A DNA stretch of 47,012 nucleotides, taken from positions 1 through 47,012 of the forward strand of contig WHUD01000022.1 of the NCBI GenBank assembly GCA_009377385.1, written 5' to 3'. The translations under genes were made by a program, and so were the position numbers. Below are positions 25,663 through 28,198 of the stretch, piece after piece (position 1 is the first letter of the stretch; every line of letters starts with the position of its first letter). The stretch comes from Actinophytocola sp. (GTDB lineage: Bacteria > Actinomycetota > Actinomycetes > Mycobacteriales > Pseudonocardiaceae). A model generated the notes under the pieces. That model was not told where the DNA came from, made no database searches, and saw nothing but the letters and a program-made list of their open reading frames with translations.

Positions 25663-25775
25663 CGAATCTCCAATCGGCGTAAGCCTCTGGCTCTGCCCCG
25701 GGACGCACGCCGACCCGGCTTCTTCTTCGTGCGCGGTGCCCGGTTTTGTCGGTGAGGTGGGCTAGGTTGACTTCG

Positions 25776-26963
25776 ATGTCTCGCTATCGGCTGTTGCCCG
25801 CGCCCGGTCAGGAGGCCGGGCTGTTGGAGCATTGTCGGCATGCCCGGTACGTGTGGAACCTCGCCGTAGAACAACACGCCCACTGGCGGCCAGGGCGCAC
25901 GTCCGCGCCGGGTTATCTCGAGCAGGCCAGACAGCTGACCAATGCCCGCGCCGAGTTCGCATGGTTGCGTGCCGGATCGCAGACCGTGCAACAGCAGGCT
26001 TTGCGGGACTTCAACCAGGCGATGCGCAACTTCTTCGCCGGCACTCATCGCCGCCCCTCGTGGCGCAAGGCGGGCATGCACGAGGGCTTCCGGCAGGTTG
26101 CCGTCCGTCCTGAGCACATTCAGAAGCTGAATCGTCGGTTCGGCAGGGTGTGGGTGCCCAAGGTGGGATGGGTGCGGTTGCGCTGGTCCCGCGCCGTGCC
26201 GGAAGGGGTGAAGTCCTACCGGATCACGCGGGATCGAGCGGGCCGGTGGCATGTCGCCTTTGCCGCCAAGCCCGATCCTCTTCCCCGGCCCGGCAACAAC
26301 CAGGCTGTGGGGGTGGATCGTGGTGTGGCGGTTTCGGCTGCTCTGTCGACCGGGGAACTGCTGACCACACCCAGCCTGACGGTGGGCGAACGACGGCGGC
26401 TTGCACGGCTGCAACGCCAGCTTGCCCGCTGCCAGCGCGGATCGAACCGGCATCGACGAGTCAAAGCGGCGATCGCGAAACTCTCGGCCCGCCAAGTGGA
26501 TCGCCGTAATGACTGGGTGGAGAAGACCTCTACCGACCTGGCTCGCCGGTTCGATGTGATCCGGGTGGAAGACCTGAACATCCAGAGCATGACCCGCTCC
26601 GCGAAAGGTACTCTGAAAAAGCCTGGTACGAATGTGCGGGCGAAGTCCCGGTTGAACCGGGGCATCCTCTCCAACGGCTGGGGTCGACTCGTTGCCCGCC
26701 TGGAGCATAAGGCTGCCGGCCGGGTGGAAAAGGTCAATGCCGCATACACGTCGCAAACCTGCTCGACCTGCGGACATCGTGCACCAGAAAACCGCGAGAG
26801 CCAAGCGGAGTTCCGGTGCCGCGTCTGCGGGTTCAGGTGCAATGCCGACATCAACGCAGCACGCATAATCGCCGCCGGACGGGCGGTGACAGCACGGGGA
26901 GCCCTCAAGCCACCAGGCGGGGCCGAGAACCGTGAACCTCAACCTGCCACCTCCACTGAATAA
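25776..26963 (+). CDS. tnpB: TnpB, RNA-guided nuclease (IS200/IS605 OrfB)
   Basis: A 395-aa TnpB. The RuvC-type active site is complete: Asp181 (VGVDRGV), Glu265 (IRVEDLN) and Asp358 (CNADINAAR). The inserted zinc ribbon is complete too, with Cys329/Cys332 (CSTCGH) and Cys348/Cys351 (CRVCGF). TnpB proteins are programmable DNA nucleases guided by an RNA from the right end of the element. The ATG at 25776 is preferred because family proteins begin near RYRLLP; an in-frame TTG at 25746 and GTG at 25752 are alternatives, and none has a strong ribosome site. There is no frameshift or internal stop. The gene is head-on to the hsa operon. Confidence 0.92.
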   Translation: MSRYRLLPAPGQEAGLLEHCRHARYVWNLAVEQHAHWRPGRTSAPGYLEQARQLTNARAEFAWLRAGSQTVQQQALRDFNQAMRNFFAGTHRRPSWRKAGMHEGFRQVAVRPEHIQKLNRRFGRVWVPKVGWVRLRWSRAVPEGVKSYRITRDRAGRWHVAFAAKPDPLPRPGNNQAVGVDRGVAVSAALSTGELLTTPSLTVGERRRLARLQRQLARCQRGSNRHRRVKAAIAKLSARQVDRRNDWVEKTSTDLARRFDVIRVEDLNIQSMTRSAKGTLKKPGTNVRAKSRLNRGILSNGWGRLVARLEHKAAGRVEKVNAAYTSQTCSTCGHRAPENRESQAEFRCRVCGFRCNADINAARIIAAGRAVTARGALKPPGGAENREPQPATSTE

Positions 26964-27010
26964 GCGCTGGTCGTGAGTTGAAATCCCCCGTCTACAGACG
27001 GGGGAGGACG
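26850..27010 (+). ncRNA. Putative TnpB guide RNA (reRNA/omega-RNA) scaffold
   Basis: In characterised TnpB elements the guide-RNA scaffold spans the 3' end of tnpB and the right end, and the guide is the flanking DNA. Here this corresponds roughly to the last part of tnpB, the 47-nt tail with the 9-bp hairpin at 26985-27004, and AGGACGTCAA. The 5' limit is arbitrary. Confidence 0.35.
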
Positions 27011-28198
27011 TCAAACCATCGAGTCCTTGACCTGCTGGCCGAACTCGGCCGTGCCGAACATCTGGTACGCGCGCTCCGGGTCGTTGGCCGCGTGCACTCG
27101 GCCCGCGTGGGCGTCGCGCCAGAACCGCTGGATCGGCGTGCCCGTCTGCAACGCCCTGCCGCCGGAGTTCTCGAACAGCCGGTCAACGGCGGCGATGGCG
27201 CGCTCGGTGCCACGCACCTGGTCGCGGCGCACCTTGACCCGCAGCGAGAACGGGATCTTCTCGCCAGCGCAGGCGTGCCGGTACTCCTCGGCGATGTTGC
27301 TGGTGAGCTGCAGCCACGCGGCGTCGATCTCGCTGGCGGCCTCGGCGATGCGCACCTTGGCGAACGGGTCTTCCTGCGACTTCTCGCCCGCGTAGGCGGC
27401 GCGGACCCTGGTGCGCTGGTGCTCGACGTGTGCCTCGTACGCGCCCTGGGCCATGCCGATGATCGGCGCGGTGATCGTGCTGGGGTGCACCGACCCGAAC
27501 GGCAGGCGGTACAGCGGGCCTGGGTTGACCTCCTGGCCGGGCACCTGGCACTTCGACATCGGGATGAAGCTCAGCACCCGGTGCTGCGGAACGAAGACGT
27601 CGTCGACCAGGACGTCGTTGCTGCCGGTGCCGCGCAGGCCGACGGTGTCCCAGACGTCGTTGATCTGGTAGTCGGACTTCGGCAGCAGATAGGTGCAGAA
27701 GTCGACCGGGTTGCCCTCGGCGTCGAAGGCCGGCCCGCCGAGCAGCACCCAGGTGGCGTGGTCGCAGCCGGAGGAGAAGCTCCACTTGCCGGACAGCCGG
27801 TAGCCGCCGTCGACGACCGTGGCCTTGCCCATCGGCGCGTAGGACGACGAGATGCGCGTGTCAGGGTCCTCGCCCCACACCTCGTCCTGCGCGGCGGCGT
27901 CGAACAGCGCGACGTGCCACGGATGCACACCTAGGATGGAGGCGACCCAGCCCGTCGACCCGCACGCGCTGCTGACCAGCTTGACGGCGGTGTAGAAGTC
28001 GACAGGGTCGGCCTCGATGCCGCCATAGCGCGTCGGCTGGAGCAGGGCGAAGAAGCCAGTCTGTTGCAACGCCTTGATCGACTCGTCCGGCACACGCCGG
28101 AGGTCTTCCGCGTCCTGAGCGCGCTCGCGCAGGGCAGGAAGGAGCTCCTCGATCCCCGCGAGCACCTCGGCGGCACTGCTGCTTGTCGGTGTCGGCAC
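27011..28198 (-). CDS. hsaA: HsaA, oxygenase component of 3-HSA hydroxylase
   Basis: A 395-aa flavin-dependent monooxygenase of the acyl-CoA dehydrogenase fold (GRYGGIEA-type segment near 58, WSFSSGCDHATW, DTVGLRGTGSNDVLVDD). It works with HsaB to hydroxylate 3-HSA at C4, giving the catechol for HsaC. The length (394 aa in M. tuberculosis from memory) and the ending DSMV show the protein is intact although the tnpB element starts at its stop codon. The GTG at 28198 has only a weak ribosome site. A KstR-type box lies 44 nt upstream. Confidence 0.93.
   Translation of the reverse strand: MPTPTSSSAAEVLAGIEELLPALRERAQDAEDLRRVPDESIKALQQTGFFALLQPTRYGGIEADPVDFYTAVKLVSSACGSTGWVASILGVHPWHVALFDAAAQDEVWGEDPDTRISSSYAPMGKATVVDGGYRLSGKWSFSSGCDHATWVLLGGPAFDAEGNPVDFCTYLLPKSDYQINDVWDTVGLRGTGSNDVLVDDVFVPQHRVLSFIPMSKCQVPGQEVNPGPLYRLPFGSVHPSTITAPIIGMAQGAYEAHVEHQRTRVRAAYAGEKSQEDPFAKVRIAEAASEIDAAWLQLTSNIAEEYRHACAGEKIPFSLRVKVRRDQVRGTERAIAAVDRLFENSGGRALQTGTPIQRFWRDAHAGRVHAANDPERAYQMFGTAEFGQQVKDSMV

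What the first reader, a model, noticed from the sequence alone, without database searches (positions are those of the whole stretch)
25663..27015. tnpB-only element splits the hsaA-hsaDCB operon exactly at the hsaA stop codon
Seen: hsaA and hsaD, adjacent in known sterol clusters, are separated by about 1.35 kb carrying an opposite-strand tnpB. The right end abuts the TGA of hsaA (27011-27013) and the left end lies beyond the hsaD ribosome site, so both proteins are intact. Known: hsaA, hsaD, hsaC and hsaB form one operon needed for ring A cleavage. Inference: hsaDCB must be expressed by read-through against tnpB or from a promoter in the element; the right-end hairpin could also dampen read-through, giving polar loss of sterol growth or a rewired operon. 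The insertion seems selected not to damage either protein.
Basis: partly seen in the sequence, partly recalled or inferred. Interest (0 to 1): 0.75.

Follow-up and report, generated by a model that had tools for sequence, protein, structure and literature searches.

The report
Transposon hidden in stop–start overlaps
A small mobile DNA element sits between two steroid-breakdown genes at the spot where, in two close relatives, one gene's stop signal overlaps the next gene's start; its own tip supplies the missing stop signal, and dozens of related elements appear to sit the same way, so this lineage likely lives inside bacterial operons without breaking their proteins.

Summary
A tnpB-only IS200/IS605-type element of 1,352 bp (25663-27014) lies between hsaA and hsaD. 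In two of three same-genus genomes hsaA and hsaD overlap as ATGA. The element lies exactly before that ATGA: TCAT stays on the left as hsaD's start codon, and the element's own right end (TCAA) gives hsaA an in-frame TGA (GTA-TGA becomes GTT-TGA, Val kept). Its left end carries GGAG 5 nt before the ATG. The pattern recurs: in relatives, 34 of 57 scorable right flanks are an upstream gene ending in the element's TGA, against 52 of 1,456 control TCAY sites; in elements fetched later, 14 of 25 against 14 of 252. Three further junctions with empty counterparts are base-exact, two of them annotated by NCBI as 4-bp overlaps. I infer that the TCA at both ends splits an overlap into a start and a stop, making operon overlaps a harmless niche. 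Expression of hsaDCB, TnpB activity and the mobilising transposase are untested. No report of the pattern turned up in the searches listed.

The parts
25663..27014 (+). whole element, 1,352 bp, tnpB-only, IS200/IS605-type ends
   Evidence: junctions read against empty sites in G001 and G003
25659..25662 (+). TCAT in the left flank: inferred target/TAM; on the - strand ATGA, start codon of hsaD
   Evidence: sequence; same motif TCAT/TCAC at 62 of 65 called sites
25668..25671 (-). GGAG, Shine-Dalgarno-like, 5 nt before the hsaD ATG, inside the element
   Evidence: sequence; strong SD core in 27 of 64 left ends, shuffles mean 7.2, max 15
25776..26963 (+). tnpB, 395 aa, predicted RNA-guided endonuclease
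   Evidence: NF040570 above cut-off; Pfam OrfB_IS605 and Cas12f1-like_TNB; RuvC residues aligned
26984..27005 (+). right-end hairpin, 10-bp perfect stem, 2-nt loop
27011..27014 (+). TCAA, element's right tip; TCA at 27011-27013 is the hsaA stop codon TGA on the - strand
   Evidence: sequence
27015..27034 (+). predicted guide segment (20 nt), the last coding bases of hsaA
   Evidence: TCAT + 20/20 match in empty G003, 18/20 in G001
27011..28198 (-). hsaA, 395 aa, intact
   Evidence: NF045629 over its whole length
24802..25662 (-). hsaD, 286 aa, intact
   Evidence: NF045632
23903..24802 (-). hsaC
   Evidence: NF045631
23337..23969 (-). hsaB open frame (true start probably internal)
   Evidence: NF045630, residues 27-210
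28242..28255 (.). KstR-like 14-mer (consensus recalled) upstream of hsaA; none inside the element

Best explanation
A 1,352-bp tnpB-only element with IS200/IS605-type ends has likely split a 4-bp ATGA stop/start overlap between hsaA and hsaD, leaving the ATG to hsaD at its left edge while its own right-end TCAA gives hsaA an in-frame TGA. Shown by sequence: the ends, the intact frames, the empty ATGA overlap in two same-genus genomes, and base-exact filled and empty versions of three other junctions. Shown by frame scoring: the same stop phase at 34 of 57 scorable sites of relatives and 14 of 25 fetched later. Inferred mechanism: a Y1 transposase supplied in trans inserts the element 3' of TCAY. 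TCAY is RTGA on the other strand and the right tip TCAA repeats the TCA, so landing on an operon overlap doubles the shared motif: one copy stays a start codon, the other becomes a stop codon in the right phase (xxR-TGA becomes xxT-TGA). In this element's clade the left end also offers GGAG at 5 nt, which would stand in for the lost translational coupling; with no terminator-like site, transcripts would read through into hsaDCB. TnpB, whose guide would be the end of the upstream gene and whose TAM would be the next gene's start codon, would cut empty copies and so keep the element in place. Selection against insertions elsewhere would leave overlaps as the main niche.
For: Empty ATGA overlap in G001 and G003 and exact junctions. 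Family-wide: right flank in stop phase 34 of 57 against 52 of 1,456 controls (odds ratio 40), start plus stop phase 26 of 56 against 29 of 1,456 (odds ratio 43), later set 14 of 25 against 14 of 252. Empty and filled versions at three more junctions. Right end with TCAA and a GAAT foot like IS608. Guide plus TCAT matches the empty site 20/20 in G003. SD core in 27 of 64 left ends, 24 of them at spacing 5-6. No terminator-like site.
Against: 23 of 57 right flanks are not in the stop phase, and 22 of 56 scorable sites lack both-sides agreement even among callable ones with a start or stop on one side only. About half of the left ends have no SD core, Mycobacterium-type ones among them, yet sit in overlaps, so the SD is not needed. 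Other-left-end clades show only 4 of 26. Of four distinct plasmid insertions read, two (L188, L189) have no upstream gene in the stop phase. Left boundaries were called by eye. The frame scorer is right at 2,122, silent at 650 and wrong at 248 of 3,020 positions in annotated plasmid genes it was not trained on. No TnpA in this genome, and this copy's right guide reads AAAT, not GAAT (sequence; 50 of 58 have the G). No expression data.
Confidence: 0.8

Rival explanations
1. Plain TCAY insertion followed by purifying selection: the element lands on any TCAY and overlaps remain because most other sites are harmful; the TCA at both ends is a by-product of Y1 chemistry, and the left-end GGAG is chance or a transposase-binding constraint.
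For: Two to three sites are gene-interior, so other TCAY sites are used at times. IS608 also has a TCAA right site with another target (TTAC), so TCAA need not be an adaptation. Mycobacterium-type left ends lack an SD.
Against: Controls hold 29 overlap sites beside 121 none/none and 91 start-only sites, elements 26 beside 3 and 11, so selection would have to disfavour ordinary intergenic sites strongly. GGAG sits at a fixed 5-6 nt while the spacer varies.
Confidence: 0.5
2. The insertion is polar: the element separates hsaDCB from its promoter and from translational coupling, lowering ring-cleavage enzymes.
For: 1.35 kb of DNA with opposing tnpB transcription lies between the genes; coupling through ATGA is lost.
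Against: No terminator-like site, a GGAG before the ATG, all four proteins intact, and a homologous left end at the same place in G002, so it is not a fresh lesion.
Confidence: 0.2
3. The element has been recruited as a regulator of the sterol operon (RNA-guided repressor or antisense control).
For: tnpB lies antisense to the operon; this copy looks immobile (no TnpA).
Against: The RuvC residues are kept; the guide has no second target within 3 mismatches in the genome held; the element is absent from G001 and G003.
Confidence: 0.07
4. An antisense bridge frame (25659-27014, - strand) keeps ribosomes on the mRNA: it starts at the TTG overlapping hsaA's stop and ends at the TGA overlapping hsaD's ATG.
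For: The frame is open for 450 codons.
Against: Only 10 of 58 members have it and lengths modulo 3 are 23/18/17; GC-rich DNA opposite a gene is often open.
Confidence: 0.05

Closest known systems
IS608 (IS200/IS605 family; PMC5934647, passages seen)
   Same: Right cleavage site TCAA, guide GAAT at the foot of the right hairpin in the family consensus, tetranucleotide target kept in the left flank.
   Different: Target TTAC rather than TCAY; carries tnpA; no link to stop/start overlaps seen in the passages.
ISDra2 TnpB (PMC8612924, passages seen)
   Same: TnpB guided by right-flank RNA, TAM equal to the insertion motif, cutting of the empty donor joint.
   Different: TAM TTGAT, which is no start codon on either strand; activity shown there, only predicted here.
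TnpB as a gene drive in plasmids (PMC11870625, preprint, passages seen)
   Same: TnpB cuts empty copies and favours copies with the element.
   Different: Insertions there disrupt a reporter; here the niche spares both genes.
Tn7 at attTn7 (recalled)
   Same: A mobile element that uses a gene boundary as a harmless site.
   Different: Tn7 uses one protein-read site after a gene; this lineage uses many junctions through a 4-nt motif and repairs the stop codon with its own tip.

Membership tests
IS200/IS605 family, tnpB-only (IS1341-type) | intact TnpB with RuvC D-E-D and zinc finger | tested here: met
IS200/IS605 family, tnpB-only (IS1341-type) | no tnpA in the element | tested here: met
   no Y1_Tnp in the genome held, about 90% complete
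IS200/IS605 family, tnpB-only (IS1341-type) | insertion 3' of a short motif without target duplication | tested here: met
   empty sites in G001 and G003
IS200/IS605 family, tnpB-only (IS1341-type) | subterminal hairpins at both ends | tested here: inconclusive
   right hairpin clear; left end of this copy does not fold better than shuffles (z -0.21), left hairpins clear in several relatives
IS200/IS605 family, tnpB-only (IS1341-type) | mobilised by a Y1 TnpA in trans | not testable with these tools
   TnpA present in G002 and G003, not G000 or G001
RNA-guided TnpB nuclease | RNA-guided cleavage next to a TAM | not testable with these tools
   guide and TAM only predicted
TldR (nuclease-dead TnpB-like repressor) | lost RuvC catalytic residues (definition recalled) | tested here: not met
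   residues aligned and present

The most novel reading that the evidence does not exclude
A lineage of actinobacterial tnpB transposons has made the 4-bp stop/start overlap of operons its home: its target motif is the next gene's start codon, its right tip is the previous gene's stop codon, its left tip has in part of the lineage evolved a ribosome-binding site, and its guide RNA is the tail of the upstream gene, so it can enter and defend a place inside operons, core ones included, without cost to any protein.
Probability: 0.45. Interest if true: 0.82.

Novelty: new variant of a known kind. Interest (0 to 1): 0.66.

Why it matters
Transposons must land somewhere harmless. Here a four-base motif and the shape of the ends would turn a common kind of gene boundary into a safe site, with a rule any genome can test: RTGA split into RTG at one edge and TGA at the other. 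It would explain how insertions persist inside operons such as succinate dehydrogenase cytochrome b and the gene after it, mycosin/EccE, or just before recO. It gives TnpB guides a predictable source (tails of operon genes) and TAMs a meaning (start codons). It also warns that an insertion sequence inside an operon need not be a knockout, which bears on reading sterol-degradation clusters.

Tried and rejected
Rejected: right-hairpin terminator; Rfam families in the window (0 at gathering score); the antisense bridge frame as a conserved trait; a second genomic target of the guide; phages and viral contigs as carriers (no match; 13 stretches but no relative).

Scorer history: one search used GC3 only (33 of 70 right flanks in the stop phase, 17 in its mirror frame on the other strand) and cannot tell those apart, so it was dropped. 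One search trained a codon-usage scorer on 15 window frames; one (hsaC) was read out of frame (exposed it), several others were ORFs not checked as genes, and its 1,703 of 1,733 test used training genes. rest on it (right 36 of 57 against 54 of 1,464; both sides 31 of 56 against 32 of 1,464; later set 14 of 25 against 13 of 252). One search retrained on five NCBIfam- or Pfam-supported genes, tested out of sample and gave the counts used here. The TnpA query was the antisense reading; one search repeated it: 0 of the 65 site loci have a hit, only L089/L094, L093 and L117 do.

Rows dropped: 105 distinct tnpB loci; 65 with a called left end, 27 in clades with another left end (4 of 26 scorable in stop phase), 13 left out (L002, L031, L037, L056, L062, L063, L066, L088, L089, L108, L116, L117, L118). 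L111 is the same site as L109. L104 and L109 are one junction in two species; merged, 33 of 56 and 25 of 55. The left boundaries of L036, L051, L105, L110 and L121 first set were moved. In the later set 4 of 29 loci had been seen already. 'TCAA in all right ends' is true by construction, since the pattern ends in GTCAA; 6 of 64 sites had no such end. The '14 of 29' and three of five dN/dS pairs (2-25 codons) are not used.

Papers: (listings and abstract starts) showed no paper on TnpB/IS605 elements in stop/start overlaps; one search returned none; one search was for IS608 ends. Passages only were seen of PMC7290912, PMC8612924, PMC11870625, PMC9956272 and PMC5934647. The library lacks most subscription papers, so absence is weak.

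Full report
WHAT IS THERE. The window holds hsaA (27011-28198), hsaD (24802-25662), hsaC (23903-24802) and hsaB (frame 23337-23969) on the - strand, each above its NCBIfam equivalog cut-off, and an intact tnpB on the + strand at 25776-26963. The RuvC D, E and D residues and the zinc-finger cysteines align with a solved TnpB-like nuclease (which residues are catalytic is partly recalled; D191 of ISDra2 is in PMC8612924).

EXACT ENDS. Three other same-genus genomes are held. In G001 and G003 hsaA and hsaD overlap as ...TCG ATG GTATGA...: the hsaA stop TGA shares its bases with hsaD's ATG and the A after it. In the window the same place reads TCG ATG GT, then TTGACGTCC... (1,352 element bases) ...GGAGATTCG, then ATGA; the element is 25663-27014. 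On the tnpB strand the left flank ends in TCAT and the element in TCAA. The hsaA stop (27011-27013) consists of element bases; its last codon is GTT instead of GTA, still valine. The hsaD ATG is native; the bases before it, with GGAG at 5 nt, are element bases. G002 has an assembly gap here, then bases homologous to the window's left end (82-base stretch compared), ending at the same ATGA. Of 200 family genomes with a strong HsaD match, the 26 best loci from other genera were read: hsaA lies beside hsaD in each, with no insert of this size, and the junctions vary. Element DNA is sporadic: 24 of 390 family genomes.

THE RULE IN THE FAMILY. The tnpB search of named genomes found 115 relatives and kept the best 80; one search added family loci. 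Of 105 distinct loci, 65 had a left boundary that could be called by eye (42 TCAT, 20 TCAC, 2 CCAT, 1 GCAT); the right end was set by the pattern G[AG][CT]GTCAA. Reading frames in 150 nt on each side were scored by codon usage. The scorer finally used was trained on five genes of this window; on annotated plasmid genes outside its training set it was right at 2,122, silent at 650 and wrong at 248 of 3,020 positions. Of 64 sites (one duplicate removed), 45 of 63 scorable left flanks have a gene starting at the RTG of the left motif and reading away from the element. Of 57 scorable right flanks, 34 are an upstream gene whose frame leaves two bases, so that the element's TTGA reads xxT-TGA, a stop. 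Both together: 26 of 56. For 1,456 other TCAY sites in the same flanks the figures are 52 (right) and 29 (both); odds ratios 40 and 43. The three gene-interior combinations hold 2 of 56 elements and 787 of 1,456 controls. Elements fetched later (plus L184; 25 new ones of 29): 14 of 25 right flanks in the stop phase against 14 of 252 controls, p = 8e-10; with a mechanical left-end rule and the earlier scorer, 13 of 21 show a start and 7 of 21 both. Clades with another left end: 4 of 26. Earlier, partly mistrained counts are told under Tried and rejected.

INDEPENDENT JUNCTIONS. (a) A flavoprotein-like/cyclic-nucleotide-binding-like pair (names from my reading): 28 of 30 loci empty with an ATGA overlap, 2 filled with the element exactly before ATGA. 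(b) Plasmid pMyong1: a conjugative DNA-transfer gene, element, hypothetical gene; two plasmids whose transfer gene is 98.8% identical are empty, and their records annotate the two genes as overlapping by 4 bp. (c) Plasmid pMA100: eccB, element, eccC; two plasmids at about 86% identity are empty and annotate a 4-bp overlap, ATGA in one and GTGA in the other. One search prints (b) and (c) base by base. Of four distinct plasmid insertions read, these two fit; L188 and L189 have no upstream gene in the stop phase. Neighbours of other insertions match known families: mycosin then EccE (mycosin fragment below its cut-off), two MlaE-type permeases (below cut-off), succinate dehydrogenase cytochrome b before an unnamed frame, an unnamed frame before RecO, and pairs such as solute-binding protein/permease and P450/enoyl-CoA hydratase.

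HOW IT LIKELY WORKS. The right end consensus is GTTGGAATCC-hairpin-GGAGGAYGTCAA (the TCAA is by construction of the search pattern, and 6 of 64 sites had no such end). IS608 has right cleavage site TCAA and guide GAAT, and its target tetranucleotide stays in the left flank (PMC5934647, passages). With target TCAY and tip TCAA both carrying TCA, an insertion at an RTGA overlap leaves RTG as a start on one side and makes TGA a stop on the other, in phase. That is arithmetic from the sequences; that a Y1 TnpA does the insertion is inferred. The genome held, about 90% complete, has no TnpA hit, and 0 of the 65 site loci have one in their flanks by a single-query search. In ISDra2 the TnpB guide comes from the right end and the TAM equals the target (PMC8612924, passages); here the guide would be the end of hsaA and the TAM hsaD's start. 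TCAT plus the 20-nt guide matches the empty site 20/20 in G003 and 18/20 in G001, 20/20 in 17 of 28 empty loci of (a), and 20/20 and 19/20 for (b) and (c). No other target lies in this genome within 3 mismatches of TCAY plus the first 16 guide bases. TnpB cleavage is plausible but untested.

TRANSLATION AND TRANSCRIPTION. A strong SD core lies in the left end at 27 of 64 sites, 24 of the 27 at spacing 5-6; shuffles give mean 7.2 and maximum 15 in 300; the native upstream region of the same sites has one in 20 of 58. So under half of the sampled left ends bring one; Mycobacterium-type left ends mostly do not and still sit in overlaps. No terminator-like or sigma-70-like site lies in 24700-28300. 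KstR-like 14-mers (consensus recalled) number 16 in the window against 3 expected, none in the element. Whether hsaDCB is expressed normally is unknown.

STATE OF THIS COPY. tnpB is open and looks constrained against its nearest relative L008 (dN 0.11, dS 0.51), but the left end folds no better than shuffles, the right guide reads AAAT (sequence), and no TnpA is in the genome: possibly a fixed resident.

VERDICT. The element is of a known kind; its niche, the split stop/start overlap, turned up in none of the searches made.

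Noticed in passing
L024, L025, L028, L039, L049, L064, L071 and others, just upstream of tnpB on the opposite strand: TnpB relatives in Planomonospora and Streptomyces have another left end and, divergent to tnpB, the start of a frame that reads like a ribbon-helix-helix protein (my reading); they rarely sit in the stop phase (4 of 26).
   Followed up: partly
window 25659-27014, - strand: An antisense frame of 450 codons runs through the whole element from the TTG overlapping hsaA's stop to the TGA overlapping hsaD's ATG; 10 of 58 members share such a frame.
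   Followed up: yes
L034, L047, L113 left ends: The first base of the left motif differs (CCAT, GCAT) while the start-codon part CAT is kept; perhaps drift after insertion.
   Followed up: no
window, 16 places, e.g. 28242-28255, 41799-41812, 43236-43249, 45398-45411: KstR-like 14-mers are far more frequent than chance (16 against 3 expected, one mismatch allowed), so the window looks like a large sterol regulon.
   Followed up: no
G000 contig C244, 34591-35739 (L002): A second, distant TnpB (34% identity) in the same genome; its ends were not worked out.
   Followed up: no
L117, 346-699 and tnpB match: A distant TnpB locus with a Y1-type TnpA nearby (42% identity to the G003 TnpA), a possible donor type of transposase.
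   Followed up: no
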